A stretch of DNA of 64,000 nt from Rhynchonema sp. JSB1_4 (taxonomy: Eukaryota; Nematoda; Chromadorea; Monhysterida; Xyalidae). A model generated the notes under the pieces. The model was not told the DNA's origin, searched no databases, and worked only from the letters and a program-made list of their open reading frames with translations. The stretch lies in NCBI GenBank assembly GCA_030248065.1, contig JASAMV010002688.1, positions 124,001-188,000 on the forward strand, written 5' to 3'. The translations under genes were made by a program, and so were the position numbers. This document shows positions 4,924 to 57,830 of the stretch, in pieces (position 1 is the stretch's first letter; every line of letters starts with the position of its first letter).

Positions 4924-7082
4924 ATGACAAATGTTGAAGACCAAGAGCCCCGGGTCATCTTGCCAACATCTTGCAAAGTGTCGACTAAGATTAAAAAACC
5001 GGATAAATAAATTACAAAAAAAACTTCAAAATTATTTTATCTCTACAGATCAACCTAAAATTGATTCTGGTCAGCGGTCGTACCAAGGAGTTCCTCTTCT
5101 CACCGACCTCATCTGCGAACGACATTGCTCAGCACGTTTATGATAACTGGCCTGAAGGTTGGCTGATGATGTTTCATTAGGCACGTATGTAGTTGCGATT
5201 TTGCAAGTGCATACTCTCCAGGTTTGGACCGATGCTTTATACTAAAGTGGGATTAGCAGGCTTTGGGCTTTAGTCACCCTGTGTAGCGTGGATGGAATTT
5301 CTTTGCTGATGGTTTTCGAACATGACATTTCAATCATCCTCATATTATGGCGATTCACATTTCGCCTTTCAGAATGGTCAGATGAAAAAGTTGACACTGC
5401 ATCGGTGCTCAAGCTCATCTATCACGGCAGATTTCTGCACGGCAGCGTCACTTTAGGAGGTTGGCATCTGGGTTTCGTATTGCGTGAAATGATTATGGCT
5501 CAATTCGTCTTACAAAGGAGTTACGTGTGGCATGCATGAAATAACTGCTACCGTTTCCCGCGTTCATTGAACGGCCGGCCCTCATTACAACAAAATAATG
5601 GTCGTCGACATTGTCTAACCATATATGCGTCAACTACGTTACAATTAGCCGTTGTGTTGTGCGAAAAAAACATTTTCTGAAGTACTTCATGATAAACGAA
5701 GAATTCGAATTAATTTTCTTAATATCCTTAAAGCGGCCCGCCGCTATTGCTTTTTGGTTTTCGACCTCGGTTATTTCATCGTTTGTTGGCATCGAGATCA
5801 AGAACATTAGTTTTGACGAACTTTACCAAAGTGGCGATTACCCGCCAAGATGGCCTATCGATAACAAAACTGTCCGATACTGACGCACATTTGCACATGG
5901 TGATCAGGAATTACAAAAGAAATTCAAAATCACTGGGGGCAGTGGGTTATAGTAGCCCGATAAAACATTAGATCTTTTGTGAATGACAAATGGACAATGC
6001 TGCTGACCGACACAAAGACACATGACCGACACAGGATTTAACCGAAATTTCAAGGGCGGTAATTTGAAGAATAAATTAAAAAATTATCAAGCGGAGGGAG
6101 TGGGTCAAAGTTGGAAATTCAAGATTTAATGCACATTATCGTGGTGGACAGGGATGGTGGACATTCAGCAACTGTTTCGAAAATGGTGGAGTTTGGATTG
6201 GACAGAGATGGTGGACATTCGACAACTTTTGCGAATCTTCGACGGAGATGGCGCTTCAAAAGTTTATATTCAGTCCATACCGTCGCCATGTGGGCCAACT
6301 GTCTCCAACAGCTTTTCACCGAAACAAGTTTTGAGAATGGTGGACGGAGATACAAGTGTCGAGAATGTTGGACGGAGATGGTGGACATTCGAGAACTTTA
6401 CCGCTCACCTGATGATTCACTCGTTCCGTGCCACTCGGATACAACCCAACTTGAAACAACCCGAATCTGAGTGGAGGAACATGTTTCGAAATTTTTCGAA
6501 AATGTGTCCGGTCCAGCATGTGTCGGTCAACAGCAGCACGCGACAAATGTTTTGTCAACCTACCGTAACGCGCCGCCTATACCACACCTCAGTGATTTGA
6601 ATTTTCCTTTGGAAATCCTGATTTCCACGCTCAGATAGTGCGTCAATATTGGGGTGATTTGTTCCCGAACGGCCATGTTGGTGGATAGATTTTGATGGGT
6701 AAACGTTAGTTTGGTGAAGTTATTGAAGGTTAATGTTCTTCATCCCAGTGCCAACTAACGATTAAAATAAAAAAACTGAGGTCCAAAATCCAAAAAACAA
6801 TAGCGACGGGCCCGGATTAAGTCAGTCACGTGAGCAAGACAATGTTTCAGCCCTGAGTCTGCCGATGGCCAAGACAACCGTGATGCATCTGGTGGCCAGA
6901 GAAAACCTTCCTGAACCAAACTCTCAAGGTACATGCGGGTTCGAAATCATTATCTTCAACAGTGCTTGTTCTCCCGGATATATACAATTCAAATTACCAT
7001 ACGACTTATACTAATTATTTTTTCAGACAACCTGAAAAAATCCAAGTCAAGCTGCTGCCGATGCTGCTGTACAATATCATGA
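4924..7082 (+). CDS. UBL3: Ubiquitin-like protein 3 / membrane-anchored ubiquitin-fold (MUB), complete
   Basis: Five exons are 4924-4953, 5049-5157, 5373-5459, 6851-6928 and 7027-7082. Every junction is GT-AG and the phases agree, giving 119 residues; human UBL3 has 117. The core reads LKLILVSGRTKEFLFSP, then DNWPEG, LIYHGRFLHGSVTLG, and KTTVMHLVARENLPEPNSQ, which is diagnostic of UBL3. The C-terminus has a cysteine cluster (SSCCRCCC) and ends CTIS, a CaaX box with Ser last. Known family members are prenylated at this box and held on membranes, where they act in E2 binding and in protein sorting to extracellular vesicles. The first exon (MTNVEDQEPR) is short and is the least certain part; it was chosen because it restores phase and length. 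Intron 2 carries TGATGTTTCA 9 bases after its donor, and intron 3 ends AATGTTTCAG. A candidate poly(A) signal lies at 7742-7747. Confidence 0.93.
6133..6400. repeat. Imperfect tandem repeat in UBL3 intron 3
   Basis: The phrase GGACGGAGATGGTGGACATTC recurs in whole or in part at about 6140, 6200, 6240, 6340 and 6370, with diverged spacers. The repeat keeps frames open on both strands. I read those frames as a by-product of the repeat, because they bridge no UBL3 exon and match no family I know. Confidence 0.55.
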
Positions 7083-7741
7083 AACATCACCCTGTCTAGC
7101 TGCCACACACGCGCATCGTTTTCCAATTTTCTCTTTCCTTTCTTTTTTGCAATATCTTAACGTGTGAAGAACTCCATTTTCCATATTCTATATTCCATTT
7201 GTTGTCATTTTGAAATTACAACTGACGCTCTATGCTTTCGCCGAATGCTTGCTGCGCGAAGTTAAAATATTGCATCTGAAGCAGGTTGGTTGGCTGAAAC
7301 TTGTTTGGTATTTGTTATCCTCAACAATTGTCTATTAATTCCTCTTTCTTTTTTACAACGTTTTTAATATGCTTCTTGTCATATATGTACAAACTTTGGT
7401 CTTCGAGTTTACAACACTGTTCAGTTTGCCCTTCTCTCTTTCCATGTGATTGGTCATTGAGTGAGACTACTGCGGTATATGATTTCCTTCATCTCGACTA
7501 ATGATAATTATGATTCAAAAGTGGCATTTTTTATTTCTGTTGATTTCACTACTATTGTCGTTCTATAGACTAATGGTATAGTCCATCCACCAGCTCATGG
7601 CACTTTGTGTTGCTGCTGGCTGGTTTGTTCCCTTCCTCCACGTTGTAATGAAAGAGAAATTGAGAGTGTCCGATTTTGCAAACAAACTAAAAAAATAACA
7701 AAATGTGTCGAAAAAGATTGCATTCAATCAAATTTAAAGTT

Positions 7742-7747
7742 AATAAA
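7742..7747 (+). terminator. Candidate poly(A) signal of UBL3
   Basis: AATAAA lies 660 bp after the UBL3 stop in AT-rich DNA. It is the first canonical hexamer I noticed downstream on this strand. No transcript end is visible from sequence alone. Confidence 0.35.
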
Positions 7748-7749
7748 AT

Positions 7750-10700
7750 TAAATTAAAATCAGTAAAACACGTCGATTTCATAAAAACCACAATCTAGGA
7801 TCAAAAATAATTTTTTTCGGAAACTCAATTTCTCTTTCATTAGAACGTGGAGGAAGGGAACAAGTTGGCCAGCAGCATAACAAAGTGACATGAACTGATG
7901 GACGGACTATACAGTGGTCAACTCTCGTCGTCAACTCAAGCAGCCCTAAATGCGTGCCATACACCGGAATGGACGACAAGTATCGACGATCTGAGTGGAC
8001 CACAGTACTATAAGACCACTGTAAGGTAACTTTCATGCTTTTAAAAACTTTCCGGAGGAATTTCCGAGCCACTCGATAAGTGAAAAATAGGTTGCGATGT
8101 GCTGTGCTTCCCTGTTGTACATAACACAAGTCCAACAAAATTTTATATCAAGGCACCGAGTTTTATCTTTGCTGTATATATTTCTGTACAATTTGAAAGT
8201 TTCTTTAACGTCGTTTGTTGTGTATAATTTTAAAGAAAGGAAACAACCAATCTTTCATTGCTTGCTTTACATTATTGTTGCTGTGCGTGTGCGGTATTGA
8301 AAGTTGCCAAAAGATTACGTAATTGGTCCGGTCAGAAACCTGCTACGTTAGGTCAGTCACTTGAGGGCGTTTTCTTTGTTCGCTTTTCTTGATGAAACAT
8401 CAGGCAAGACAGCAAAGGTATCATAATATCCTGCTGCGAATCCATGTTAAAAGTCACAGTACAGGTTATCCTGACCGTAAGTTGTTGATATTTCACTTGC
8501 GAATGTTGCTGTCCAGCCCATCGGTGACATACCTAGTATCTGACCGAACTAATTATCGTGTATCAATACATTGAAATTACGGATCAGCTCACGCCGATCA
8601 GTGAAAAAAAAAATTATCTTTGTTGCTTCGGTAATTCGTTATTGGTCTTTTAATTTCAAATTTCTGGGGCAATTTTGTATGCATTTGAGATATATTGGCA
8701 ACAGAATAAGGTCAATTGGTGAATGATAATAGACGAAAGCTTTTCAACGCAGAATTCGGTTCAAAACACGTTCACAAAGTTGCTTTTTCGGTCATTTTTT
8801 CCTGCAACGCTAGTGCATGTGATACGATTTTTCGAATATTTTGTATAAAGTTTACCATAATTTATGATATTCGAGTTATTTCAATGAAGCCGATTGCTCG
8901 TATTGTGTTTCATTTTGTCATATTATGTTGAGAAATTTAAAGCTGAAATGAAATTTGAGACAAAATAGGAAGCGGACGAAAAAGGCCAATCGTTTGGTCA
9001 ACGCGCGGTTCGAAATAAGAACGTCACACGATTGGTTGACAGACACAGACTTCTGCATAAAAGCAATTTTCACAAACAATCACCCAAAACGAACAATGCG
9101 ATGCTAGCGCATGACATTCTGATGTCAGCGATTGAACACATCATCGTTGTAATAATATGTTACTCAGTGTTTTGTAAACGTGCCAAGTTTTTTGCCCGCG
9201 CTTGTTATGTTGTTGTGTGGTTGCCAGCGCAGGTACAGTACAAACTTGGTTTGTGTTACCGCGTATCGATCTACGGTACATGCAGCTAATGTTGCACTGC
9301 TTCACCGCGTTGTTACTGGCGGCCACACAAAAGCATCCCAAAACACGCACACGCCGCGAGGGCTGAGTTGGGCACAGCCCTGTGAGTGCACAGGGTCTAT
9401 GTGGCCATGTAGGAGCCAGGAGGAACCCACACGCTGCCATGCGCTGTATGTACATACATGTGGCCGGGCAGGGACTATAGCTGCTGCCATAAGCACAAGA
9501 CAGGCAGCAAGATATATGGCCCAGGCCAGAGCACACATAAGGCTGTTGTGTGCAGCAAGACGCCCTATGTATGTGTGTGTGTGTGGCTTCGGTATATGTA
9601 CATACGTGCCTGCCCTGCATCCCTGCACTGCTGCTTGCTTCACGTCTGTGTACACATACACGCAGCAATGTATGTATGTGCTGTAAATGTCCCACATGTA
9701 CATACGCACATCAGAGCGTTCAGAGCTGCTGCTGCTGCTGCTATACGGCCTACATACACTCTGCCGTCTCGACTGGATGTGGGATTGGTTAGGGGGTTAC
9801 TGGGAGACACAGAGCAATGGGCGTGAAGCACGAGCAGAACTTCAGGATGGTCAGACATGATCAGTTTCGGCCTCATATTTGTCTGGCCACGGCTGGCGTT
9901 CCATGCCGTTCAGTGCGAGTCTGTTTTCCTCCACCCATATCTCGACCCCCTCGCGCAATCCCCGTGTCCATCCCAGTCCTATACCCGGGCATATAGCGCA
10001 GATGTGTGCCCGCTCAGCATCAACGACCGAGTGCGCACACACAACACATAGGCCCCCAATGCTTTGCTATGGTCTGTCTATGTATGTGCCCGTTGTGTAC
10101 GTTTCGTGCCGGCCTGTGTTAGCATATGCGTCTATGCGTGCACACATGCTGGCTGCCATAGCTGCTGTATATGTCCGATACATTTGTGTGCTGCTTGATA
10201 GCGCTCCGTGCTTGCTGTATTGGTCACCCGTTTGTTGGGTATAGCACCAACCGTGACCCGCTAGCTTTAGCCATAGCCATATAGCCACAGCTAGAGCTAT
10301 AGATTGCGCACGCACGCATGTACAGTAATACTGGTCTGTATGACCAGGCTGGCACAAGCATTTTTACCGATTTTGTCGATTTTCATAGAAGTTCGCGGAT
10401 TTCTGCCAATTCCATGAGCAACTGGTCTGCGAAATCCAGGAAAAGTCACACGATGTTTAAAACATTAGTGTTGTTGCGACGCACTGACTGCTTTTTGCTT
10501 CCACGCGGCGTGGTCTCTCTCTTCTTTTTGAATTTCGCGCGCTCTGGGTCATCTCGGTCCACTGACGATCCCCCGGGCCGGCCAGAGATTTAAGATCGGC
10601 GGCTGGGGCTGACCAAAACACTGGCCCGTCCCGAGTCTGAGGTCGGCCCGGCACGATGTTGGGGTCAAATCTTTTAATGGTCTGGTGAAAAACCAAAATT

Positions 10701-11217
10701 TTCTTGGGGAAGCACGCGTTAGTTTTTATGAGTCGGTTTCGGTTCTTGTAAACCGGGTCCACAAAAATGTGCATATGAAGTCTGCGCGAAGAGCATTTTT
10801 TGGAGATTTTTGGTCAAAAAAGGCTTTGGCTTGACGTTTGAGCAATTTCGGGCCGGGTCTTGCTTGCCGGCAAGTCCGGCTCGGCTCGGCCCGAACGCCG
10901 AACCTCTAAAAAATCTCCGGCCCGGCTCCGATGCGCTTGCTGTTCCAGCGCATGGTTTCTGCCGCTGTTGCTGCTCAGCTGCATTTGTGCACTCGTTCAT
11001 CGAACGCAAACACTCTTCTGTCTGTTTTCAGCTGTTGAAATTGCAAACAACGATTATACAGCCCGCCAGAGCCAGACGTGTTTAATTAACAACCCCGCCC
11101 CGATTTCTTCTGACATTTGTGCCTGTCGCCTGTGCGGTTCGGTCTTCGGTTACCTATTCTTCACTCCGACCCGTGTGAAGTCCGATCCTCAAAATTCCCC
11201 GTCGCGTTCGTACAACA
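7750..11217. other. Intergenic region between UBL3 and the HMG gene, no gene seen
   Basis: About 3.5 kb without a supportable gene. From about 9.2 to 10.35 kb the sequence is richer in G and C and full of CATGTATGTACATAC-like and GTGTGTG runs. These hold long frames open on both strands, but the predicted peptides are Cys/His/Thr-rich junk. At about 10570-10590 and 10907-10926 there are short inverted GC-rich blocks built on CCGGGCCGG, possibly a decayed element. The 5' leader and promoter of the HMG gene should lie at the right edge, but I cannot place a start site. Confidence 0.5.
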
Positions 11218-18298: not shown

Positions 18299-18376
18299 GT
18301 GAGCGCTGTGGCGGGCAGATTGGATCTGGACCGTTTTTCATTCAGTTAAAATTAATGATCAGTTTTTGTAGACCCT

Positions 18377-18998: not shown

Positions 18999-18999
18999 T

Positions 19000-21900
19000 A
19001 GTTGGGGGTATGTGGGTTAATACACCCACAGAGATACCCGGGTCAGCTATCTATGTCTACCGAGCTGGCCCCTACGGCTATCTATGTCTACCACCCGGAC
19101 CAACTGCATCACTGCGTTAGACTGCCCCTTTTGCTAGCTGGTCAAGGCCTTGTAGTCAGCTTTTATCATGTGTAATCACCACGAAAGGTGGTCTAACATT
19201 TCGTCAATGGCCCGGGGTATCACACTCAACAATTTATTCGTATTTGAAAGTGGCGTAATATGTTGAGGATTTGTGAGCACATATGAGTGTACATACTCAT
19301 TTATCCGTTTTTCTTCAGCCACCACTTTAGTCGCCTATAATTGCAACCTGTGACGTTTTGGGTGACGCAACACGGCAACATCAGCTGTTTTTGTCCGGTT
19401 ATGTTCAACTGTTTAAACAATACCGCTGTTTTAACGGTCTTATGTATGATTGAATGTTTGTACGTACGTACCTTACAATGCTACTTCGCGATTTTAAAAC
19501 TGGAAAACGTGTTTGTTCGTGTGTTCTCTCTCTCTCGTTCGTCCATACATTCTCACTCTTGTGTGCATGTGTATCTGATGTTTCATTTGACAAGTCAATT
19601 TTTGGCAGGACTTGTTAGATTTGTTTGGCTTGGTGTGTTCTTCGTTTTTTCTCAACAAAATACAGTCGTAGCTGTAACTTTATAGATGCAGGTTTTTCGT
19701 CATAGTGAGAATTCACACCTGTTGTTCTAAAAAAACATTAGCGCGCGAAATTTGCGTTTTTTGGTGTCAAAAATGCTTGTTGTTTGTTGCTATTTTACTA
19801 CGCCGAAGTCTAACATGTCACTTCTCCTTTCTTCTTCAGTTTTTTTTTGTCCGGGCATTGGCTGAAAACTAGCAAGTATTCTATGGAATCATTGCCAGTG
19901 ATCAAGATCGTTATGGAGCCAGCCTTGCTGAGTTTTAGATGTGCACATAGCTGCCGAAGAACCAGTTCTTTATATTTTTTGGGGAGAAAAAACGAAAAAC
20001 AAATAAAGAACGGTGGTGTATAAGCTTAAGGAACCCAAACAAGCATTTTGGGGAGTAATTACAGCGGCTTTGACCGTGAGGGATTTTGAAAAGTTTTCCC
20101 CTACTCCGAAAAAAGCCCATCGACCCGCGTCGACTTGGCTTTCATTTCTTTTCCATGCCCTAAGAACGCTGAACAAAAAATTTTTCGGTTTTTGTCTGAA
20201 AACCCGTTTTTTTTCACGCGGCAACTATAGATATGCATATCTCGAACAGCCAGCACAAGTCCGACCGAATATTCCATTGCCCTTTTTAATTGCTAAAACT
20301 GGCAAATGTGACTATCTCTTTTAGTGGAAGCATTTTGTTGTAGACCTCTTCTGCTCCTTTGACGTCTTTGCTTCTTTTTGGCCTCGCATCCCTCTATCTC
20401 TCGACTTTTCACCGATCCAAAAAACTTTACCCCTGAAGCCGTTCATCCAAACTTTAATGTACTTTGTTGTACACAACTTGCTTGAACTTTTGGTCGTTTT
20501 TTACGTACTACGTTTGTTAGACGGGTCTATTGTTATGAATTTGTTTTGTCACCTAGCTGTTTTTTACATTTCATCGCGCAGGAGTTTGTGACAGGAACGT
20601 TTACGCGATGTTCAGTTTTTACAATATGCCTCATTCTGCAAATATATTGTTTTCGATCTTGGAAAATTATCATGCCAGACCTAATCCTGTTAAGACCTGC
20701 TGTCATTAGGTTCCATTCATACGCGGCTGATGTGCAGTCATCGTGAAACATCGGCAAGCCAATTCACACGCTTTGCGTTGAAAATACACGAAATTGTTTA
20801 TTCATGCATTGGTGTCATGATGTGAACTTGGTTCGATGATGTTTCATATTTTTAGCCCCTTGAACGTTATTGGCCAAGAACCTAGGTACCTTGTGAACTT
20901 CATGGCTGCATGAAATTTAACAAAACACTCCGATGTGCTGGTGGTGTGTTGTCCAGCATCAGAAGGCACCGAAGTCAGTGTTGGTCTTCAGCTATTTTTT
21001 TATTCGTTTCTCTGATTTCTGTGCGGGCTCACAGAAAATCAGACCCTCAATTTGCAAACTGGTAGTTACGGACATATGCCTCCCAGTGTGGATAACGTAG
21101 GCACACGTGTTGATACTGGAGGAGGCTACATCCGTAATTCTCAGGTTGTGTCCTGGAACATTGAGCATGCTTACTGTGAACCACCTAACCATTGATGGAG
21201 TTGAAGTTCTGAAAAGCACTCTATTTTGTAGTACCATTCTGTGTTGTCCACTTATGGTTTCGATTCAACCAAACCTGTAATCAACCTATAACTTTCGTAT
21301 CTTTATCGGTTTCAATCGTACCATTGCAACTCAATAATTTCCTTGCATTGTAATCCTTCAACCGATTTGTTTTCCCGGGACCGTTGTGTATGTACCTGTG
21401 TATGGTACGTTTCAGTTCAGCGGTTAACATCGACCTTACGCCGTCTATACAGAAACAATTACATTATGTATGTTACATAACATTTTGTTAGTTTCCGTTC
21501 AATTTGTCCCATTGCATACAAAGTGATTTTGTGCTTTGTTTTGATTATTATTTGCATGTTAAAACTGTGGTCGAAATAAAAAAACGAAAATGATCTGCAT
21601 TTTGGGCTTGTTGTCTGTTAAGAAATCACATTTTTATGATGAAACTACGAATTATACAGTCGTATGTATACACGTACACAAAGGTAGGTAGTGTAAATAT
21701 AATCTCAAAAATAAATTTTTCAAACCGGAAACGCACAATGAGAAGAGATGCCGATATATGTGAAAAATGAAATGGACCGAACAGAAATGGCCCGAACCCT
21801 GATTCAGCAATGGGGGACAGACAGTTGGAACAACTGAGAAGACAGCTGGACAAAAGACAGCTTGTTTCTTGTATACTACGCTTGGACTGGCATATGAAAA

Positions 21901-22013: not shown

Positions 22014-22019
22014 CCGGTA
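22014..22019 (-). terminator. Candidate poly(A) signal of the ODR-2-like gene
   Basis: AATAAA on the minus strand, about 200 bp after the ODR-2-like stop codon, at a plausible distance for a 3' UTR. Confidence 0.4.
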
Positions 22020-22220: not shown

Positions 22221-23920
22221 TTATCTAAGTGCCCATACGCCGATGACATGTGCGATCACAGCAATCACGGCCAAGACCAGCAGCCCGTCACTGCTGGCCA
22301 ACAGTTTCGTCCTGTCCGCCCGTCCGTGAACATTCGCGCCGGCCGACGGAGAGCCGTTGCATTTGTCGGCCAGACACGAACAAACTTCGATCATGTCCTT
22401 CTGCTGATCGACCTCGGGCTTCGGTTCGTTCGAATAGTGTCTTGAAACATCTGGATTGAACAGATGCATCATCTGACGATTGATCACACGACAGAGTTCG
22501 TGCGGCCCGACGGCGGCCATCTCGCGGCGCAGTTCGGCGCCCATGTTGAATAGCAGAAAGCGATCGATGCAACCGCGCATGTAGCGTTTGCTGATCTGTA
22601 CGCCTGCAAACAATGTGATTGAATACGAACGAAGAGGCATGTACACGTTGTATAGTGAATGGGATTGGTGTCCAGCAGCCCGTGCGCGATTTCTGATAAG
22701 ATAATCAATGATTGTGTGTATTCGATGCCTAAATCAAGGCTGGAATGTTCTGTGAACTGTGACATGAAATATTGAAACATCACCATTAGGTCTGACTGAC
22801 TTGGTAGGAAGGACACGCACCATCGTTTGTTCAAGAAACACCCGGGTTGCTGAACAACAATTTGCAGGTATAGGTCGGCAACATTTCATACCTAAGTTGG
22901 TGTTGGCTCAGAAAAAAGGAATTGCATATTCAACACATTTTGGCACAAAACCGCAAAGCACAGCATGTTGATCAGTCTGTTGTGATATGAACAGAGCGCA
23001 ACTCAACCAAATCAAACGAACTGCACACAGTTTGGGTCACACAACATGGGGTTGTAATAAGTGTGGTAGTAACATCAAACAACATTTCATTGGTAGTTTA
23101 GTTGTAAAATGGCCAGCATAAAAATGAGTCGGTTTGTTAATCACACGGCATCATTATAGCTTGCGCTTCAACAAAAGACACCTTTGTAGTGCGATACAAA
23201 ACTCACCACTTTTTCGTCGGTACCACGGCAGATGATCTAAGAATGCGACACACAAACACATTAAATCCACACTTTTTGGGGTCGTAATAGTACAGGGGTG
23301 ATAAACATGGTGTGGGATTAGGTGTATACACGTAACATAGTGGGTTGAACTCGGATAGGAAATGTTCCATCGGCCACAAAAACGAAGAACTAACCGCACC
23401 TGTAGCGTTAGGTGAAGCGCCTACACGAAGAAATGAAGATTTAGCGGCATGGAAATTATATCCAAACGAATTTAGATTGAAGGAACTGGCATGTCGGGGT
23501 GATAACAGTTTTGGTGATCAGTCTTAGAAGCGTCCCTGGGACTTTGATAGAAAAGTTCGAGTAATTTGACGTGAAAAACGTATATGTACAGAGATCTTGC
23601 CTTGTAAGACGGATCATCAAGCATCATCCCGTGATCAATTTCACCCTGACGATGTCCCCTACCTCCGATGGCCACGTTTTCGGTGACCGTCAAACAGGCG
23701 TGCTTGCATCGTTCGGTGGTGACATTGCCGCGGTATTGGTCGGGCGCGTCGCACGCGTCCGTGAAGGACTTTGGCGGATAATAGTGGTAGACGAGCTCGT
23801 GCCACGACAGTAGGTACTGCCGCGACATGCAACTGTAACAGTCGCGTTCGCTGTTTTGTCGCACGAATTTCATCCCGCCGCGGTCCGACGTGTACCGCGA
23901 CTGTTCATTGCTGCCCGACT
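22221..23920 (-). CDS. ODR-2/HOT-like Ly-6 family GPI-anchored protein, 5' exons missing
   Basis: Two exons are 23663-23920 and 22221-22603, GT-AG and in phase. The first carries the family start ERDCYSCMSRQYL, then FTDACDAPD and ERCKHACLTV. The second carries GVQISKRYMRGCIDRFLLF and the closing signature IEVCSCLADKCNGSPS. It ends in a hydrophobic run (LLVLAVIAVIAHVIGVWAL), as expected for a GPI-attachment signal. In C. elegans, ODR-2 and its HOT paralogues are neuronal Ly-6 (three-finger) surface proteins, and ODR-2 is needed for olfaction. The N-terminal signal peptide is not in these exons. A possible one is a Leu-rich stretch (FTALLLLLFIHLAQSG) on the minus strand near 24500, but its donor phase does not fit directly. 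Intron 22604-23662 contains TGATGTTTCA in the sense direction at 22773-22782. Confidence 0.85.
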
Positions 23921-26560: not shown

Positions 26561-29500
26561 CGCCTCTTTTGTGGCCGCTGATTTTTTCCCCTGCCGCTTT
26601 TTTGTTTTGTCCGAATTTGAAGATGTCGGCACCAAAACAGTGCCGCTTTGTAACCGGACAACAAAGATTCATAATCCAAAACGGACGCGGACAACTGGCT
26701 AAATGACAGACAAAAGCGAACATGAGGAGCACACTGCTATTTCTGGAACTGTTGTTGTTTCCAGCGATGATTTACTGCGATGCTTGCATGTTCGCAACAT
26801 GAAAACTTTGCCGCTGGTCTTTCTATCATACTACCCACGAGACAAATGGCTAAAGTTGCTGTATAATGCGAACTAGCGTGCTGAATAGCTGATGTTTCAG
26901 TCAACAAAAGTTAACAGTGCTAAGTCATGCATGCCAACATTACAAGCCCAGCACAGGGGCAATGTACCTCCAAGAGCACAGGGGCAATTTGTGGAAAGTT
27001 GCGGCATGCGTCAATCGCGCGCACGACAGAAGCATGTCCGCGGGAGCGGGAGCACCCTTTGTCACACCGCGGCTACATAGGAAAGTTCCTTATGCCAACA
27101 CGCTGCGTCATACGAACAAGTCGCGGACAGCACTTGCAGAAGTGCTAAAATCAGCAAAGCGACCTATCAAATCACAACCTGCTTGTGCTGCTGCAGCACC
27201 GCATATCCCACGTCCGATTTTCACAAATTGAAAGTCACACGAATGCGCACACGCGCACACGAGCTGGCGCCGAATTTGAAACAAAGAAAAATTGTGCGGC
27301 CCATCCGTTCGCACGTGGGTATGGGGTCGGTGACTTTTGCTAAATGTGACTCCATTACTCTTGGTCGCCGCGGGCAGAGAACCTCCAATGTTGATTGGAA
27401 CTGCAGTTGGTCTCTTCCCGCCAACTTTATTAGTTCTTTATCTCAAAATGCTGACGCGCAGATGTTTGAATTTTTTTTTTGAAAACCGAAGGATAACAGC
27501 GCTGGTGAGAATTCTTACAAAAAGCTTGCTTATGCCGTATCAAGATATTTGGGTTTTTAGGGCAGACACACGCCATGAGCAGATTTTTTCAGCTGTAAAG
27601 CCAAAAAAACGGACCAGAGCGCAATATAGGTATATTTTGTCACCCTTGTGTGCGCGTCCACTAAGGCGGAATTAAGCATTTCCTGATTTAAAAGGCACAT
27701 TATGAAAAGCGTGTGCACGCACGGAACCAGGTCACAGACAAAATGTCTACGTTCAATCCTCAGGCATTCAGATTCGGTCTGGGATCGGCGTCCGGTTCAT
27801 CTTGGGCCGTTATGCTCGACAGCCAAGTTTTTGTGAAACATCAGCAAATCAGTTTCATGACTGCACACGGTTGTCCACAACCCACAACGTTTCAGACACT
27901 AATTGTCACTAATCTATTCGTGGGATAAGGCATTCGTTTCAGAACCATACCGATATAACCCGGACATGTTTTTCAGTCCGAAATACACCTGGTGCGAAAC
28001 GCAGAGCGGTCGCAGAATGAGTTCACATGGAATAAGTTGGGACAGGTGAGCTGAGCATAGGGGTTGTTCACAGCAGCGAGCTTTTGGTTGCAAAGGGACC
28101 ACCTGACCCAAGCTGCGTTTGGGAACTGAGCTTGTATACGCTAAATGGGGGTTGGGTTGGGTCGTGGTCGTGGGTAGCGGTCCAGACCCAGCCAGCACAG
28201 AAATTGTGCGAGAGTGTTACAACACATAAATTAAGTCCGGTGTAAAAAGTTTAAGAAGCAAATTTTCTTGGAAAACAAATTTTTGATTCTATATAGCTAC
28301 ATACATACGCCTAGGTTTCAGAAGTTCCCGTTTTTTTAAACTGATCAGGTATAATAGCTACAATAGTATGCACCAGATACTGATGCACTCACTCCGAGCG
28401 CCCTTAAAAAGCACAAATAACCCATCGTATAAACGTTTATTGTGGCAAACGTTTATGCTCGCACACACCACCTGTCTGTCACAACGAAGTTTATGACCGC
28501 GACACAGCACAGATGGATACATTATTGCGCGTAACCGCCTGCGCTCAAGGAAATGGTAGGGTTGAAATTTTCAGATTTCAAAAAGTGTCCAAAGCTCTTG
28601 TCTTAAACAAGCATAAAAAATATTGGTCGAGAATTTTTTCACGGTTCAGGTTTCTCACCCGATGAGGAATGTGAGAATCGCAACTTGGTGCCTTCTTTTT
28701 TCTTTCTTTGTTTCCAGAAAACCAGCGCAGATCATGAGCTTATATGTAGGTATACCACACAACGCAACACGTACTCGAATACAAATCAGCTCATCATCAT
28801 CGCTCGGTGCTCACAAAAACAGGGCACATCGGTCAGCCTTGTCCGGGTCCAACCCTGCACAAAAACAGAGAGCAAGTACCGCCGGATCAAGTGTTAAAAA
28901 AATAGTTCGAGAACCTAGAGAATGTGCAAAAGCGGAAAGCAGAACAAAACATAATGTAGAAAATCAGCCAGTTGGTTTCAGCCACAGTCCAGCAATCCAT
29001 CGTCAAGATATGGGATTTTAGGAACGCGCTCCAAAACGGCCGCGTTACAGTTTGACTTTGGCCAAGCTCCGCACTCTCTGCATATCTGTTTCGGCCATCA
29101 GCGACTCCAAAACAGAATCACTAACTGCGGTTATGGACAACTATAGACAGTCAAGCCTCTGTAAACTTGGATCGGACCCGCCCGTATTTTATTTTCGTTT
29201 CTTGGACGGCAGAAACGTGTTGTGCTAACATTTTAATTAACCGTTGATCAATGAAGGATTTACCGCCAGAGGGTTCATTATAAAGAGGGGTGTTGGTAAA
29301 GCTACATAGTCTGCACGTCACGTACTTTGACTTTTCTCCAGCATTTTCTGACCCACAAGGCAGATGGGAAGAAACGTCACACTGTCCAAATCATGCTCAG
29401 ACAAGCAGGGACAAGCATCGTCAAAGCGTCAGAATTGCGATTCTCAGAAAATGAAATTGAGCTCTAAATGTTATTCAAAATGCCCCCTTGTGAATTGCAT

Positions 29501-30316
29501 ACGCTATATGTGACTGGTTCAAATTGAATCCTGGAAATTCGAAATTCTCAAGTCTGCCACGAAGCTGTCACAATGCTCCCCATTCTCTAGATTAATTCAA
29601 GAAAAAGTAGTGTCAACAAAGATGATTGAGAACAAGTCGTCGCGGGGCACTGCAAACGCAATCAACTGATCAAATGGGCGTTAAAAGAGTGTGTTGCAGT
29701 TGCAAATACGCGTGCGCGGTTTGCAACTCAGACAATGCCGGCTTAATCAAAGCTGATGCGCGTCCCCGCACGAGTGCACGCAAAACACGCAGCGACGCTT
29801 TTTTTTATCCGATCTGCTGCGCTTGCAGTATATGTGCGATCATCATGAGATATCGAAAATAAGCGCTCACACGCGCGCGTGATACGCAACTGGCACACCG
29901 CAACAATGCGCGCGCGTGCGCAAATAATAAAGAAAACTTTTTTGCGCCATTTACCTTCCGATGAGGAAACACAGCCGGGCCGGGGCCAAAATCAGTAACC
30001 CGGACGGCCGGCTGACGCTGACACAACTGACATTCTAATGGCAGAAACCAGAAACTTTCAAATTTGTCGATTTTGTCGGTCTTTTTTCTTTGTCACGTTG
30101 CCATCTGGTGCGTTCGCACTGACGATGACGCATCTGTGAAACATCACGGCAACGAAGAACACACTGCGCTGCACAATCCATAAGATTTCGCCGATCCCAT
30201 ACTGTGTGTTCTATCGTCACTCATATCGTACAGTGCATAAATGTGTGCCGGACTTCAAAAAAAAAGTTACGGTACGCGCGTGTGCGCATGCTCATCACGT
30301 CATGTCAAAGTGAATG

Positions 30317-30356: not shown

Positions 30357-33302
30357 ACGGTAGTAACTACAACGCGGCGCTCGCGCGTTTTGGCATGAAA
30401 TGAGTGGTCGGCAGGCCAAGTGAGTATATGCATAACTGGACGCATACGTACATACGTATGTACGTCCACTGCAATGCCAGACCGACGTAACAAGAACCAC
30501 CGTAAGAGCCGACCAAGTCGTTTAATAAAAACTCCGCTCGTCAACCGGCCCGTAAAAGCACTTGCTTTCGTCGCCCACTCCGCTGGGCAGGGTCCGAAAA
30601 GTTGTTGTTGTTGTTTGTTGTTGTTTTTGAGCATCTAGTGGTAATAAGGACAGCTGGACACTACACACACACACACACAAAATTGGGCCACGTGGGTGCA
30701 TGTATGTCTGGGGTAAGCGCAGTGTCTGCAGCGCAGTAATTGACACCGGAAAGTTAGTGACACGGAGGTTTGGCAATGCCACTGCGCAAGTTTGAGCATA
30801 AACTTGTGCGCTTACAATTAACAATTATTTCAATTGGTAATAACCATGAATGGCTTTGACAAAATTGTGAGATAACTTTCAAAAGGACCTAAAATGGCAG
30901 CATCCAGCACAACTGCCTGACGAGCTGCAGACAGTCATAGTCAATTTGGTGTCGCATCGAGCCAACGGCAGCTGTCAACGTGTCTGTCATATACTTGTCA
31001 CTCATTGGGTAGTCGTCGTCGTCGCAACAATAAACCAAGTGCGCGCCCTTGCTTCCAAAGGAGGAGTCGACGAGCCCCCGCACAAGCTGGGGGTTGCCAA
31101 ATTTTGCCAGCACGCACGCATAAGGGGCGCCTAAAGTCTTCGCGCGCAAGGGTTGATTGAACTTTCGATAGTCGAGTAAAAGAGCGGCAGAAAAACCGGC
31201 ACATGAACAGCTCGTTCATGAAGCATGAAAGCGTATACCAGTTTGCCATTTTTTCACTTGTTCCTTTTTCATCCGCTGTTCCACCGATTTGAATTTCGGA
31301 CTTTATCTTGCAGTTCTTCACATCAGTTGCATGAGCGCCTCTTTGCGGCTGCCTGATTCACGGTATGAAACCGAGATGATACATACATGTGCAGCTGCAA
31401 CAGCGCATACTCGAACCCCATTTGACTGCCATATCAGCCTAATTCAATCAAACTAAACGCTGCGCACTTGTGAAAACTATATATATACGCGGGGTTGATA
31501 AAGTGCACAAAATAAAGGGTGATAAACGTTTCAACGCACTTTTGGCTGCATTTTCGTGGTCTCTTCATTCAATTTGGCCGGCCACATTATCGTTATCATT
31601 GACTTGACCCAGAGCCAGAACGCTTGTGCGCTAAATTTGGAAAGAAAATGCGCAAGCTACATGGCTGGAAGTTCAAAACGTATCCTTCCATGCTATCCAG
31701 AAAGCTTTGTTTTGGACGGTGGTATACCTATACATGCCGACAAGGAGTAATTCAATATCAAAGTCTATTTGTTTTCTATTTGAAAAAAAATAATTACTGG
31801 GCCACGCCTTCCATTTCACAAAGTATACTCTTAGGCTTCAGGTGCTATTGCTGAGTGAGCTGGTAGCCGGAAAAATCTTACAGTATTATGTATCTGCTAC
31901 ATATATGTATATACATACATACGTATTATATGTACATACATAATAGGTACATAAACTAGCTTTAAAGAAAAAAACGGCATAAATTTTCCGACACTTCGGT
32001 CAATTTAGATTTCTGAAGATATTTTGCGCTATGATACTGTAGTAGTATTATACACAGCAAACAGACCTTGAATGGGACAGTCTAGTGGCCCGCTGCACCC
32101 GAGCACGAAGGGCACTATCGGTGTACGCAATTCCGGCTATTCCGTTAATTTATGCTGCCACCTCGCTTTATGCACTTTACAGCACCGTTCGTACCAACGG
32201 AATTAGCCGCAGATCCTTACGAAAAAACAACAACAACAACAGCACAACCTTTTGGATGTCGGCTCTGAGTTGCTTAGGTGCTAAATTGCTCACGCCTGAC
32301 GCTTGTGTCGGAATATGGGCGAACAAAAATGATCTACGGTCCTTCGTGCGCACACAACCAACTCTCTAAACAAGAGTGGTACTTTTTGTTTCGAGCTAAA
32401 GAAACAGTCCAAACACCATTTTGAATCTGACGTGTCTGCAGTAATGGGGCGAAAAAGACTGACAACAGCACGAAGCACCTCTATCCGTAAACAAATCAAG
32501 CCCAAAACATTTCCTAACAAATGCGCCACATTAGCTAATACATTTACACGCCCTCTTAGCGCGCTATTACGTGTCGTCAAGTGCATATGGGAAAAACGAA
32601 AACGACACCAAATTAATCGTTCAGCGAGCCAGAATCCAAGCTGTCAGAAATTTACTGCAGTTCTTAGGTGCCAGATTGGGTCACTACCTAATACCTATGT
32701 GCCGATTACCGCACACAAAAACTGACTTTTTCAGCTCAAGAAATAGTCAGCTAAAAACCAAGTGTTGCTTGGCCACCACAAGTGGTGATGTATCACCATA
32801 GTAAAAAGGGAAGGCACATCGCTTGAGGATGGTGAGGTACACCAAGTTTGGTATATTTCCGAATGAACAATTGCCGGCCAACTTTTTTCGTCTGAAATCG
32901 CGTAGAAAGAAGAAGTGCCAGAAATTTTTACCAATCCGATAAATTTGCGACTTACGCGCATAACAACTCGTCAAAGTGTGACAACAGAGCATTGCGGTCT
33001 GGACCCACAAGCAAAAACCAGCCAAAAATGCGTGGTTCAATGATTGCAGCTAGTGTAGCAGCGATGATTCAAGCAGCTAGTAAAATATGGGGACCAGGGA
33101 ACGGTACGGATCTGGCTTTGTTATACGATTGTTATGTGAAACATCAATCTACATGGATATTTTAAGTGATGTTCAGGGCTCAGGCCTGATATTCGCAGTT
33201 ATATGCCGTCTGGTTTATATTTCACTTGTATGATAATAATTGCGATGCGACATCTAGCCGAAACCGGCCTCAACCGAAATCTGCTCCACAAGCTTGCGTT
33301 GT

Positions 33303-36565: not shown

Positions 36566-37518
36566 ATGAGTTTCATCAATAAACTATCGACAGCTTTGGG
36601 TGTTAAGAAACGCGAGGCGCAGATTCTGGTGGTTGGACTGGACAACAGCGGCAAGTCAACGATCATGAACAAGTTGAAACCTGTCGAGCTGCAGGCCACT
36701 GACGTGCAACCCACGGTTGGATTCAACGTCGATCGATTCAGTACCAAATTGTTGAACATCTCGGCCTACGACATGTCCGGACAGGGTCGGTGATGTTTCA
36801 TTGAACAGATATGGCACTCATGTATGAACGCATTTTTGGACGTAAATCCTTCTTCTACTGGATATGGCTGTGTAGCGTTATGTGAGGAAACGAACAGCGA
36901 GTAAACAAAAAGCGGCCCGTTTCTAACAAAGGCGGCGTCTTGGAACCTGGTTTCAGGCCTGCATTTCCAGGACCAAGAGACCAAACGCCTCATTAGGTGC
37001 CGTGATTTTTGTTTTGAAAGAAAACAGCAACTGTGATACCCCACGACCCAACTACCTAGGTACTCCAGTGCTACAGACATAGGCTCGGTTAGGCTGAAAC
37101 CCAAACCTAAGACCAAGCCTAATCCTAAACGTCGACCGCTGATGAGCTTTTGTATACCAGCCCAGGTCGCTACCGTCAACTGTGGGAGCAGTACTACCGC
37201 GACACGAACGGCGTGGTGTTCGTTGTGGACGCGACCGATCGTTTGCGAATGGCCGTGGCCAAGGACGAATTGTGGCAACTGTTGGAGCATCGCGACATGG
37301 CCACCAGACACGTGCCGCTGCTGTTCTTCTCGAACAAAATGGATGAACGCGGCGCGCTGTCGGCGGTGGAAGTGTCGCAGGCACTCGGACTGGAGAAAGT
37401 GCGCGGCAAAGCCTGGCACATTTGTGCGTGCTGCGCCCGGACCGGCGATGGACTGGTGGATGGTATTGAATGGCTGAGTCAGCATGTCAAGGATGTACTC
37501 GAACAGAAGACGTCGTGA
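36566..37518 (+). CDS. ARL6: ARL6 (BBS3) small GTPase, complete
   Basis: Two exons are 36566-36785 and 37166-37518, giving 190 residues; human ARL6 has 186. The P-loop GLDNSGKST is at residues 24-32, the switch II region reads DMSGQGRYRQLWEQYY, the guanine-specificity motif is FFSNKMDERG, and AWHICACCARTGDGL follows. DMSGQGRYR in place of WDxGGQ, together with LEKVRGKAWHIC, identifies ARL6 rather than other ARLs. Known role: GTP-bound ARL6 recruits the BBSome coat to membranes at the base of cilia. The donor is GTCGGT, somewhat weak, with TGATGTTTCA directly after it. Residue 2 is Ser, so there is no myristoylation glycine. The intron's right part (37085-37130) contains degenerate GCCTAA-like repeats. 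A poly(A) signal lies 134 bp after the stop. Confidence 0.95.
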
Positions 37519-38353: not shown

Positions 38354-41044
38354 TCATCCGAACCCAAACCATCCTCCGCCCTCCAGCAACCCGTGCTTGT
38401 CTTCGATGAGGGTGTGCCAATTAACAATTGGCCTTTTGCTGGTCAACATCTCCATGTAATGTTTCGCTGCCTCGGTCGTTACGATCTGTCAAGGGGTGGT
38501 GGGCATTTTAAAGACAAAACTGTTGGAGCACCAGCAGGTATAACCAGGGATGAGGATAGTGTACATTTCGTTCAGAAAATAATTGTGAAACATTAGATGT
38601 CGTAATTGCACCACGAACGGGCTATTAATTATTAATTAATCGCAGTTTCTGGCAATAAGATGCCACAGCAAGTTTTGCACCGGTGAATACTATGGTGCGA
38701 CCAAGTCGGCCAGACTTCAAACAATCATCAACAAATGGACAGACCTGAGCGACAGCACTGTACGGGCCACCAAGCACACACAGACCAATAAAGTCATTCG
38801 AGCCCAATTTGTCGTAGTCCCACACGCTCACCACAACGTGCACCTTCTGAAAATGCAGAAATCGAAATGAAGAGAAAATATCGATTATTTGCAAAGATGC
38901 CGTTCCTGAATTCAATTCAGCGACTAACGTCCGACAGCATTTTTGGCACCTTGAACTGGAAGCTCTCGTTGTAGTACGGGTTCATTGTGTTCGTCTTCAC
39001 TGTGGTCTTCTTTTTCATCAGTCGCTTTTTACCGTTGTACAGGTAGATTTTGACGTACGGATCTGACGACACGTTACCATATTTGAGCGAATTTCCACAA
39101 TCACTTTTCGAACAGTATTTATCATCAATAACGTTTTGATTTATGTGATTTCTCTGCCAATGTATATTTCAGATAAATGTACATGCTCTTGTGCTATTCA
39201 CCTTGTTATCGTGCATATTGCCGGTCCATCTGCTACCATTTGCTATCATGCAAACAAAAACCTTAAAATCGACATTCGGCCATCAACTTTGGGAAGCAGC
39301 GATAACAGTGCTACATTCGCACGACCATGATAAATGCACATAGAGCCCTACCGAAGTTTTCAGTTCACCCCGCCCAGCGCTCCGTGCGAAGGGATGTGGA
39401 AAACTGCAGCAAGCCGCGATACCAAATGGCCCATCACACAATCAACCTGTGGATCCAACCACATCCATTCGTTTGAGATTTCGTGCCTCCAACACAGTGA
39501 CGGTCATTGTGCCCGAGCTCTCCCTGTATCGCATCGAAAAGCACAGGTCGCCCAACCGATCCTCTTGCTCCTCCTCCGGCGGATGTACGTTCCTCCACTC
39601 ATCAACCACTTCGCCCAAGTCCACCGATGACAAAGGGACTCGAAGTTGGCCGATTCGATCGTCCTACATGTACGAGTGCCAGACAAAAACAATCGTAAAG
39701 TGATTCAGGCTGTTTGGGGCCTGCGCCTGTAAGGTGCCTGATAGAGGTCAGTGATGCATCTTTTGTGTGGAGCCTGGCTAGCGAGCCTCCAGGCGCTGCA
39801 GGCGCAGGCCTGAAACAGCCTAAAATTGCAGCTATGTACTGTATGTGTATATAAAACGTAGAGCATATACAAAACAAAACTTGATAATGTGGGGCAATGA
39901 TCGAGACAACAAATACAAACCTTTGATAACCGATCGAAATCATAGATGACGAACATGGCGTTCTTCGCACCGGCTTCGTTGAATTGTAACTGCAACAGTT
40001 GGGCACTTGAATAGAGGGACAAATCTAGTTTGGCAGGCAGGTAGTCAGGTCTTGATGACGTTTCTCCGAGAGCTTGGCGCCATATATAGAGGGGTCAAAA
40101 AACATTTTCTTATTTTTTTTCGTCCAAAAATGGGCTTTTCGGAGGTTGTTTTTTTGTCATTTTTCTTAAAATTTAGAAAAATGTTCTTCACGAAATCACT
40201 ATTGGGCCATGGGTACCGAAGATGCCCAAAATGATCCCGTGTTACATGAGACACAGTATGCATGTACCTAGTACGTACATAGGTAGTATTTCTAGGGTGA
40301 TATTTTCGAAACGGTGTAAAGGTCAGTTGGGTGTAAAGGTCGGTGGAAAGCTCGGTTGACAGCTCAGTGTGATAGACCTCGGTGTAAACTTGAAACATTC
40401 CACGTTAATAACAGGCAATGTTTCACCTTTACACCGAGCTACGCCGACCGAGCTTTCGACCGAACTTTACACCGACCTTTACGCCCAACTGACCTTTGCA
40501 CCGTTTCGAAAATTCCATCCTATGTCACACCCCATCGGGGAGCTCGAAATCGGTCAGATACGACCGATTCAGCAAACCTTGTTCAAAAAAACTTCTTTCC
40601 AACCCTGACCGCATTAGTTTGACACTTGTTTACGCAGCGTAGAATGTGAGTGTCCGCCCTTGTCAAAGCGCAACGTGAAACATCAGCCGGCAACTCACAT
40701 CAAACTGGAACGTCTGATTGTAGATCGGATTCAGCGTCTTGGTGCGCACTTTGGTTTCGTATTTTTTCTTTTTATCCGGTTCGAGGTACACCTTGATGTA
40801 GGGGTCCGACGTACCGCCACGGTCTTTGGCCGTTAGGCCATTCGCTTCGACGACGGTCACAAGCAACTGAAACATTTGGTGGTCGTGTGTTCGCTAAAGT
40901 GCAAATTGCAGTTTGTGCGAGTATTCTTGGAACAATCAGTCACAGAACGACACTAACCTTGTTCTGATCAAACTTGTAGTCCAGTTTGAAGTGCAGCCTG
41001 CCGCAGTCCTCATGTTTCGGTTTCTTTTTCTCTTTGGGCTTATC
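38354..41044 (-). CDS. Synaptotagmin, both C2 domains, N-terminal exons missing
   Basis: Seven exons are, in coding order, 40958-41044, 40699-40866, 39921-39989, 39447-39663, 38929-39062, 38745-38846 and 38354-38485. All junctions are in phase. C2A starts [16 protein letters not shown] and holds the loop aspartates in [15 protein letters not shown] and [12 protein letters not shown]2B holds them in [17 protein letters not shown] and [11 protein letters not shown]. All five acidic positions per domain appear present, so Ca2+ binding is expected in both. The end has [10 protein letters not shown], the WHxL motif of C2B used in vesicle docking. Known role: Ca2+ sensor for vesicle fusion. An unusual Gly/Trp/Phe tail (GGGWFGFG) follows. 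The transmembrane exon is not found. A 70-base candidate linker exon at 41604-41673 fits the phase. Introns carry TGATGTTTCA or close variants near splice sites. Confidence 0.94.
40295..40520. mobile_element. Intact palindromic MITE in synaptotagmin intron
   Basis: A 226-bp near-perfect palindrome with ends GGGTGATATTTTCGAAAC and the inverse, flanked by TA on both sides. It is the undisturbed relative of the split element at 14129-18232. Repeated GTAAAGGTCGGTG words fill the arms. Its centre contains TTGAAACATTCC and GGCAATGTTTCACC, so each strand carries an ATGTTTCA word. Confidence 0.85.
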
Positions 41045-42290: not shown

Positions 42291-42315
42291 CTTACCAACC
42301 GTGACATCCTGCGCG

Positions 42316-42470
42316 TATAGTCCAACCACGAGCTCATGAGACGACTTTTTTTAAAGCTTGCTTGCGTTTCTCTTTCTTTCATTTCCGAAATATGTGGAGC
42401 CGGAACATTATTGGATTCAATCCAGTCAACTTCAAACTAAGTCGTCTCATGAGTTCGTGGTTTGACTATA
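42316..42470. mobile_element. MITE with TATAGTCCAACCACGA ends
   Basis: A 155-bp element whose first 32 bases are inverted at the right end (TCGTGGTTTGACTATA) with few changes. TA at the outer edge suggests a TA target, as in Tc1/mariner-type elements. The middle shares GGAGCCGGAACAT with the copy near 24100. Confidence 0.75.
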
Positions 42471-42479
42471 CAGCACTGT

Positions 42480-45864: not shown

Positions 45865-56867
<11,003 letters not shown>

Positions 56868-56979
56868 CTGAATATGGTGTTTGGCTGTTGGGTACACCGC
56901 AAGATGGGTATAATGATTTCACATTCGACTGTGCTTGCTTGACGGTTGACGTACATTCGTAATCAGCATTCTTGTTTAA

Positions 56980-57830
56980 AATATTTTGGGGTGGGGTCGA
57001 AAACCCCGAAAAAAACCCCGAAAAAAAAACGCCGAAAAAAACCCCGAAAAATAAAAACCCCGAAAATAAAACCCCGAAAACGAAAAACCCCGAAAAAAAA
57101 ACCCCGAAAACGAAAAACCCCGAAAAACATAAAATGTGTGGAAAACAATTCTTTTGGTTAGAGAAGGGTATTCATGTCGTTCGTGCACCAAAAAATGGGC
57201 ACTGGTACAGTTCGGGCACAAGTTAGGTAATTCTCCTTTGTTCATGTCTTCCTGGCTGGCAGCCTAAGCCTAAGCCTAACCCTGAAAGAAGGCCTATTCC
57301 GTTAAACTTTTGTGGATGTTGTCTTCATGTGGCCAGGTCTTCCTGGCTGGCAGCCTAAGCCTAGTAAGCCTAACCCTGAAGGAAAGCCTGAGCAGTTAGG
57401 TTTTTGTGGAAGTTTTCTTCAAATGGACAGGTCTTCCTGGCTGGCAGCCTAAGCCTAAGCCTAACCCTGAAAGAAAGCCTGTGCAGCTGTACATTTGTGG
57501 ATGTTTCCTTCATATGGACATGTCTTCCTGGCTGGTAGACTAAGCCTAAGCCTATGAACAAGCCTAAGCCCAAGTCTAGGTTCAAGTCTGATCCGAAGCC
57601 AATTTATCAAGTGTGGGGGTGATGTTTCACTCGTGGGTCACGAGCGACATGAATACCCACCTCTAACAAGATTTTTTTTCATCCCTGACATTATTTATTT
57701 TTCGGGCTTTTTCGTTTTCGGGGTTTTATTTTCGGGGTTTTTCATTTTCGGGGTTTTTTTTCGGGGTTTTCCGTTTCGGGTTTTTTTCGGGGTTTTTTTT
57801 TTCGGGGTTTTCGACGGCCACCATATTTTG
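56980..57830. mobile_element. Palindromic element with CCCCGAAAA arms and a minisatellite core
   Basis: The left arm (about 56980-57185) is made of CCCCGAAAA-type units, then TATTCATGTCG. The right arm (about 57640-57830) has the inverse: CGACATGAATA, then CGGGGTTTT units. AAAATAT and GTCGAAAACCCCG lie at the outer edges of both. Between the arms is the tandem array at 57245-57600. The arms could form a long hairpin. It lies in what should be an upstream neurobeachin intron. Confidence 0.8.
57245..57600. repeat. Minisatellite of about 90 bp with embedded (GCCTAA)n
   Basis: Four units share GTCTTCCTGGCTGGCAG, then GCCTAAGCCTAAGCCTAA, then CCCTGAA and GTGGA plus a TTCTTCA-like segment. (GCCTAA)3 is exact at 57262-57279 and 57447-57464, the complement of nematode telomeric TTAGGC. 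The last unit is degraded into CCTAAGCCCAAG. Confidence 0.85.

What the first reader, a model, noticed from the sequence alone, without database searches (positions are those of the whole stretch)
5167..57629. A ten-base word, TGATGTTTCA, is strongly enriched and sits at intron edges
I read 15 exact copies. On plus: 5167, 20837, 26890, 36791, 57620. On minus: 7080, 8393, 22773, 27834, 30137, 33137, 40676, 46501, 49846, 50281. Close variants (TAATGTTTCA, CGATGTTTCA) add more. About 0.1 copies are expected in 64 kb on both strands at even composition. In UBL3, ARL6 and synaptotagmin it lies 9, 5 and 13 bases after a donor, sense strand. The core TGTTTCA equals the core of the C. elegans 21U-RNA upstream motif (CTGTTTCA), which recruits SNPC-4 about 40 bases before each piRNA and is common in introns. 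I infer that these may be dispersed piRNA promoters in a nematode with a variant motif, possibly hosted by introns.
Basis: partly seen in the sequence, partly recalled or inferred. Interest (0 to 1): 0.88.

Follow-up and report, generated by a model that had tools for sequence, protein, structure and literature searches.

The report
Worm genome carpeted with mini-promoter words
In this roundworm genome a ten-letter DNA word occurs 37,556 times, about a hundred times more than its backwards control, and the same word lies 45 bases upstream of two of the worm's own U1 RNA genes; the scattered copies likely act as tiny promoters, predicted to make the small piRNAs that guard the germline, although no fixed start site could be found behind them.

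Summary
Position 2 is sharply specified (over reversed words: G 109-fold, A 10.5-fold, T 1.2-fold). On the window's contig 40 of 45 copies lie outside detectable repeats, and copies between exons lie on both strands equally. New here: the word or its one-base variant TTATGTTTCA lies at -44/-45 of 7 of 9 U1 snRNA genes read, and a diverged form at -47/-48 of 6 of 8 U2 genes, so it is the core of this species' snRNA promoter element. The genome is a nematode's (closest ARL6: Plectus sambesii, 66%) and encodes a PIWI-clade Argonaute. Best explanation: dispersed SNAPc-type mini-promoters, likely for piRNAs. Against the piRNA step: no 5'-U/YRNT at a fixed distance; a hint at column 50 in 93 copies failed in 40 fresh ones, leaving at most about 14% of copies. 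'At intron edges' is partly right: 7 of 45 copies lie within 20 nt of a predicted exon edge (4% of control words), but introns are not enriched. Small-RNA sequencing would decide.

The parts
5167..5176 (+). TGATGTTTCA copy, 9 nt after the inferred UBL3 donor, sense
   Evidence: UBL3 exon Pfam Rad60-SLD_2
7080..7089 (-). TGATGTTTCA copy
8393..8402 (-). TGATGTTTCA copy
19576..19585 (+).
20837..20846 (+). TGATGTTTCA copy
22773..22782 (-). TGATGTTTCA copy between two predicted exons of a minus-strand gene (the open frame at 22221-22730 matches Ly-6_related), sense
26890..26899 (+). TGATGTTTCA copy
27834..27843 (-). TGATGTTTCA copy
30137..30146 (-). TGATGTTTCA copy
33137..33146 (-). TGATGTTTCA copy
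36791..36800 (+). TGATGTTTCA copy, 5 nt after the inferred ARL6 donor, sense
40676..40685 (-). TGATGTTTCA copy, 13 nt after the inferred donor of a C2-domain (synaptotagmin-like) exon, sense
46501..46510 (-). TGATGTTTCA copy
49846..49855 (-). TGATGTTTCA copy that itself forms an inferred 3' splice site (TGATGTTTCAG, then a predicted exon; that exon has no Pfam match), sense
50281..50290 (-). TGATGTTTCA copy
57620..57629 (+). TGATGTTTCA copy

Best explanation
TGATGTTTCA is a stand-alone word present 37,556 times in this nematode genome and identical to the element found 45 bases upstream of two of its U1 snRNA genes, and the scattered copies likely work as SNAPc-type mini-promoters that would start short Pol II RNAs, predicted to be piRNAs. 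Shown: the count, the sharp base preference with a weak flank preference (T-N-G-C before, C after), the match in sequence and spacing to U1 and U2 upstream elements, mostly unrelated flanks, equal numbers on both strands of predicted genes, and a PIWI-clade gene. Inferred: that SNAPc or a SNAPc-derived complex binds the copies, that transcription starts some 45-50 bases downstream at no fixed base, and that the products are loaded into PIWI. A G instead of T at the second base separates the scattered class (TG) from the commonest U1 form (TT), so the complex that reads the scattered copies is probably a modified one, as with the specialised piRNA complex of C. elegans.
For: Genome counts with reversed controls. 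U1: 7 of the 9 upstream stretches read have T[TG]ATGTTTCA at -44/-45, two of them exactly TGATGTTTCA; a matrix built only from scattered copies scores these 14.4-18.2 of 20.6 bits, while random window 69-mers (true copies included) reach 7.4 at the 95% and 15.0 at the 99% point; six of the seven exceed the 99% point. U2: 6 of 8 exceed the 95% point at -47/-48. The two U6 genes read, near-copies of each other, have a weaker match at -56 (8.9 bits). PIWI-clade fragment: best PDB matches are Piwi proteins (2.4e-18), Argonautes at best 2.4e-7. Copies in predicted introns: 6 sense and 6 antisense, or 10 and 9 with a wider limit, like P. pacificus piRNA loci, which lie about equally on both strands (PMC6436959, Results parts 1-3 of 4 read). 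Mostly not repeats: 40 of 45 exact copies on C1630 have no match on that contig that spans the word; 74 of 76 distinct flanks are under 60% alike; no conserved partner word within 150 nt of 54 copies.
Against: No start-site signature. YRNT and T columns show no peak at a fixed place in 74, 95, 139 and 93 copies. Column 50 stood out only weakly in 93 copies (12 YRNT; four other columns had 12 or 13), and the test written down beforehand failed in 40 fresh copies (T at +50 in 8 of 40, YRNT in 1 of 40). Pooled T at +50: 44 of 133, p = 0.07. Over 133 copies, 50 YRNT in columns 48-52 against 46.4 expected, a rough bound of about 14% of copies. No low-melting stretch downstream. The commonest U1 form TTATGTTTCA and the U2 form TGATGTGACA are not enriched genome-wide, so plain SNAPc binding alone does not explain the carpet. 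No 5' half of a bipartite motif was seen, unlike Plectus. No small-RNA data. Two of nine U1 genes lack the element, and several U1 and U2 upstream stretches are near-copies of each other, so the independent cases are fewer.
Confidence: 0.5

Rival explanations
1. The words are SNAPc-derived binding sites with another job: promoters of other short non-coding RNAs, or sites that organise chromatin, pausing or insulation, and are not piRNA promoters.
For: Same match to U1/U2 elements; the missing 5'-U/YRNT anchor; enrichment close to predicted exon edges in both orientations.
Against: PIWI is present, and in the nematodes of PMC6436959 GTTTC-type motifs scattered through the genome serve piRNAs; no Rfam family over threshold in the window or in 140 kb of the same contig.
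Confidence: 0.25
2. It is a binding site of an unrelated sequence-specific DNA factor (transcription, meiosis or chromosome structure), and the likeness to the snRNA element is shared ancestry or accident.
For: Position-2 preference (G far above A above T) differs from the commonest U1 form; no start signature.
Against: The flank preferences T(-4), G(-2), C(-1), C(+10) of the scattered copies recur in several U1/U2 elements, and the distance to the RNA start is nearly constant there.
Confidence: 0.13
3. It is an RNA-level splicing element or splice-site sequence.
For: 7 of 45 copies lie within 20 nt of predicted exon edges; some ATGTTTCAG words are themselves the inferred acceptor.
Against: Copies in predicted introns are as often antisense as sense (6/6, 10/9); 32 of 45 copies are not between neighbouring same-strand exons; 38 of 45 are not edge-proximal.
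Confidence: 0.06
4. It is the end or a remnant of a transposable element or dispersed repeat.
For: Some ATGTTTCA words (prefix CA or GA) lie inside a repeat family (C1630 4209/4234, 17046/17071, 138224/138249); 5 of 45 exact copies on C1630 lie in repeats that span the word.
Against: 40 of 45 exact copies on C1630 have no such match on that contig (only this contig was compared); 74 of 76 distinct flanks are under 60% alike; no conserved neighbour word.
Confidence: 0.04

Closest known systems
Ruby motif (CTGTTTCA) of C. elegans type I piRNA (21U-RNA) genes
   Same: TGTTTCA core; thousands of short words with unrelated flanks; PIWI in the genome; relation to the snRNA promoter element.
   Different: A instead of C before the core and a TG prefix; scattered instead of two chromosome-IV clusters; no AT-rich surroundings; no fixed downstream YRNT.
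Dispersed (P-type) piRNA loci of Pristionchus pacificus
   Same: Dispersed, both strands of host genes about equally.
   Different: No overall intron enrichment here; no pausing-type low-melting stretch; no expression data.
Bipartite piRNA motif of Plectus sambesii and P. murrayi
   Same: Piwi outside clade V; motif nearly the same as the snRNA SNAPc motif.
   Different: No 5' half seen at the scattered copies; 37,556 exact words against 3,082 sites scanned in P. murrayi, 39 of them then removed (PMC6436959); the ARL6 protein is only 66% identical to that of P. sambesii.
snRNA proximal sequence element bound by SNAPc
   Same: Identical word at -45 of two U1 genes, same spacing class.
   Different: Five of the seven U1 elements use TT where scattered copies use TG, and TT is not dispersed.

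Membership tests
Nematode Ruby-motif piRNA promoter | Word with a GTTTC core, strongly over-represented and mostly single-copy | tested here: met
Nematode Ruby-motif piRNA promoter | Word related to the species' own snRNA promoter element | tested here: met
   7 of 9 U1 and 6 of 8 U2 upstream stretches
Nematode Ruby-motif piRNA promoter | PIWI-clade Argonaute in the genome | tested here: met
   (fragment of the gene on C1663)
Nematode Ruby-motif piRNA promoter | 5'-U with YRNT start at a fixed distance (about 42 nt in PMC6436959) | tested here: not met
   rough bound of about 14% of copies in columns 48-52
Nematode Ruby-motif piRNA promoter | Low-melting (pausing) stretch downstream | tested here: not met
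   flat AT content to +140 in 93 copies; small sample, AT content used instead of melting temperature
Nematode Ruby-motif piRNA promoter | 21-nt 5'-U RNAs bound to PIWI | not testable with these tools
   No small-RNA data held
Nematode Ruby-motif piRNA promoter | SNPC-4, PRDE-1, TOFU-4, TOFU-5 present and bound | not tested
   No search made
P-type (Pristionchus-like) organisation | Dispersed, both strands of host genes | tested here: met
   6 sense and 6 antisense; mild unevenness over the 17 contigs of known length (chi2 35.8, df 16)
P-type (Pristionchus-like) organisation | Concentrated in introns of active genes | tested here: not met
   12 of 45 against about 31% of random places (ab initio exon calls, incomplete; gene activity not known)
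Plectus bipartite motif | Conserved 5' half upstream of GTTTC | tested here: not met
   clear information only at -4, -2, -1 and +10

The most novel reading that the evidence does not exclude
A nematode outside clade V has carpeted its genome with some 40,000 monopartite snRNA-type mini-promoters. [quoted passage not shown]
Probability: 0.3. Interest if true: 0.8.

Novelty: new variant of a known kind. Interest (0 to 1): 0.62.

Why it matters
How tens of thousands of tiny piRNA genes arise and are kept is an open question in nematodes (raised in the discussion passages of PMC9683057). A genome in which the snRNA element and the scattered word differ by one base, with about 109-fold enrichment, would let one test directly how a promoter complex changed its target and how such a carpet is maintained. 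It would also add a species to the two plectids in which PMC6436959 found Piwi outside clade V, if this worm indeed lies outside clade V (its best ARL6 match and the missing SL1 suggest so; no tree was built).

Tried and rejected
Fixed-distance 21U start: searched in 74, 139, 95 and 93 copies. Sense-strand RNA element: suggested by six sense cases, rejected by the strand count. Repeat origin: rejected for most TG copies on C1630. Partner element: none found. A downstream GAATGAC box seen at several U1 and U2 genes is not enriched behind the scattered copies. First iterated exon model: contaminated by low-complexity sequence, redone with a filter. SNAPc sites in general: rejected as the whole story, since TTATGTTTCA and TGATGTGACA are not enriched. 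Literature: a search for the word itself (48 papers hold it, 20 listed, listing only) showed nothing relevant among those listed; some searches gave the piRNA papers, of which PMC6436959 was read in outline, in section 30, in parts 1-3 of 4 of Results, and in passages, and PMC9683057 in passages. No claim is made that this word is absent from print.

Rows dropped or not seen: 88 occurrences in overlapping loci gave 76 distinct flanks, of which 2 near-identical ones were dropped. The 93 copies include TA, CG and CA prefixes besides TG. One of the two C9 duplicate pairs was left out of the fresh sample. U1: 9 of 10 matches read; U2: 8 of 9; U6: 2 of 9. C1630: 220,876 of 224,876 bases read. The unevenness test left out contigs whose length was unknown, among them C1 and C8, which list no copy. 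In one search, 4 of 20 stretches did not exist.

Full report
Observation. TGATGTTTCA occurs 16 times in the window (6 plus, 10 minus). Dinucleotide shuffles give a mean of 0.34 and never more than 2 in 100. In the 203.9 Mb assembly that holds the window (contig C1630, 124001-188000) the word occurs 37,556 times, against 345 for the same word read backwards. Contig C1630 (220,876 of 224,876 bases read) has 45. Spread over the 17 contigs of known length is slightly uneven (chi-square 35.8, df 16, p = 0.003, driven by contig C7; contigs of unknown length left out) but not clustered in the C. elegans sense.

What the motif is. On C1630 every single-base change drops the count from 45 to 0-8, except position 2 G to A (17). 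Genome-wide: TGATGTTTCA 109-fold over its reversed word, TAATGTTTCA 10.5-fold (6,526 against 620), TTATGTTTCA 1.2-fold (2,024 against 1,728), TGATGTGACA below its control (810 against 1,950). In 74 non-redundant copies weak preferences extend it to T(-4) N G(-2) C(-1) TGATGTTTCA C(+10). 40 of the 45 exact copies on C1630 have no match elsewhere on that contig that spans the word; 5 lie in repeats. No conserved partner word lies within 150 nt (54 copies). Some ATGTTTCA words with other prefixes are part of a repeat family, so the count of 118 ATGTTTCA on C1630 mixes classes.

Link to snRNA promoters. The genome was searched for U1, U2 and U6 and the upstream letters of 9 of 10, 8 of 9 and 2 of 9 matches were read. 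A matrix made only from scattered copies was run over 69 upstream bases. Seven of nine U1 genes score 14.4-18.2 bits at -44 or -45: TGATGTTTCA itself in two (L080, L083) and TTATGTTTCA in five, two of which (L076, L077) are near-copies. Two U1 genes with identical upstream letters have nothing. Random 69-mers of the window, which include true copies, reach 7.4 bits at the 95% and 15.0 at the 99% point. Of eight U2 genes, six exceed the 95% point at -47/-48; five of the eight are near-copies of each other, and two (L047, L054) fall short. The two U6 genes have a weaker form at -56. So the word is the core of this species' snRNA promoter element. That nematode snRNA elements of this kind are bound by SNAPc, and that the nematode piRNA (Ruby) motif descends from the 3' half of that element, is published (PMC6436959, read in part). 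That SNAPc binds the scattered copies here is inference.

Organism and PIWI. 57 hits to the nematode cuticle-collagen N-terminal family and an ARL6 protein whose best match is Plectus sambesii at 66% make this a nematode that is not P. sambesii. No canonical SL1 sequence was found (with three mismatches two hits against two control hits). 54 Piwi-domain matches were found. The gene on C1663 has PIWI-clade residues, and its two pieces match solved Piwi proteins (2.4e-18) far better than Argonautes (2.4e-7). Contigs C4595 and C3368 have hits with nearly the same domain coordinates, but their letters were not read.

Gene context. A codon model trained on 3.3 kb of homology-backed exons and then extended with its own best calls gave 117 exon segments on C1630 at score 9 or more; before overlaps were removed there were 149, where the reversed sequence gives 22. 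Of 45 copies, 12 lie between neighbouring same-strand exons within 2.5 kb, 6 sense and 6 antisense (10 and 9 within 4 kb), 1 in a predicted exon, and 32 elsewhere; random places give about 31% intron and 8% exon. So there is no strand bias and no intron enrichment on this contig. It concerns donors and acceptors and both orientations; the next band, 20-100 nt, is not enriched (2 of 45 against 96 of 1011). Some ATGTTTCAG words are themselves the inferred acceptor, several with the TA prefix. UBL3, ARL6 and a synaptotagmin-like C2 exon are confirmed.

Test of the piRNA start. From U2 spacing and the published rule that transcription starts 2 nt before the 5' U, a T was predicted at column 50 with YRNT. 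93 held copies (TG, TA, CG and CA prefixes) gave T in 39% and 12 YRNT (mean of all columns 6.5, sd 2.5; four other columns reached 12 or 13). The prediction was noted and 40 fresh exact copies were read: T in 8 of 40, YRNT in 1 of 40. Pooled T at column 50 is 44 of 133 (p = 0.07). Pooled, columns 48-52 have 50 YRNT against 46.4 expected, a rough upper bound of about 14% of copies. There is no AT-rich stretch downstream. This counts against the simple Ruby picture, unless starts are flexible or only a minority of copies fire (in P. [quoted passage not shown] PMC6436959).

Verdict. Observation confirmed and enlarged. The most likely mechanism is a carpet of snRNA-derived, SNAPc-type mini-promoters, probably for piRNAs, in a PIWI-bearing nematode that probably lies outside the well-studied groups. 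It works like a Ruby-type element but fails one defining test (fixed start), so it is not filed as a proven member. The position-2 switch and the copy number are the new points.

Noticed in passing
L047-L054, about 110-125 nt upstream of U2 genes: A shared CTAACGT(T)A-like box in the U2 upstream regions (read by eye), a possible distal promoter element.
   Followed up: no
window 14224-14258 and 40391-40425; C1630 4209-4243, 17046-17080: A repeat family with inverted TGAAACAT...ATGTTTCA words 25 nt apart and 'tttacaccgagc' flanks; it inflates counts of the shorter core.
   Followed up: partly
L038 (contig C4344) and L039 (contig C2124): Two diverged Argonaute gene copies keep the word just after the corresponding donor (TGATGTTTCG against TGATGTTTCA, matched by eye) while the introns around it no longer align well.
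   Followed up: partly
C1630 39653, 171904, 195045, 208047: TAATGTTTCA words that form or directly precede inferred 3' splice sites, so the TA variant may partly be a splice-site word.
   Followed up: partly
window 36786 and 5158: ARL6 and UBL3 introns start with unusual inferred donors (GTCGGT, GTTGGC) directly before the word.
   Followed up: no
window 14775-15122 (-) and 17490-17837 (+): Near-identical open frames in inverted orientation, with a hAT dimerisation-domain frame at 16734-17180 nearby, look like transposon parts.
   Followed up: no
C1630 about 91400-92500: Array of GTGCATTAGGGCCCA-like units with copies of the word beside it.
   Followed up: no
whole assembly: No canonical nematode SL1 spliced-leader sequence.
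   Followed up: partly
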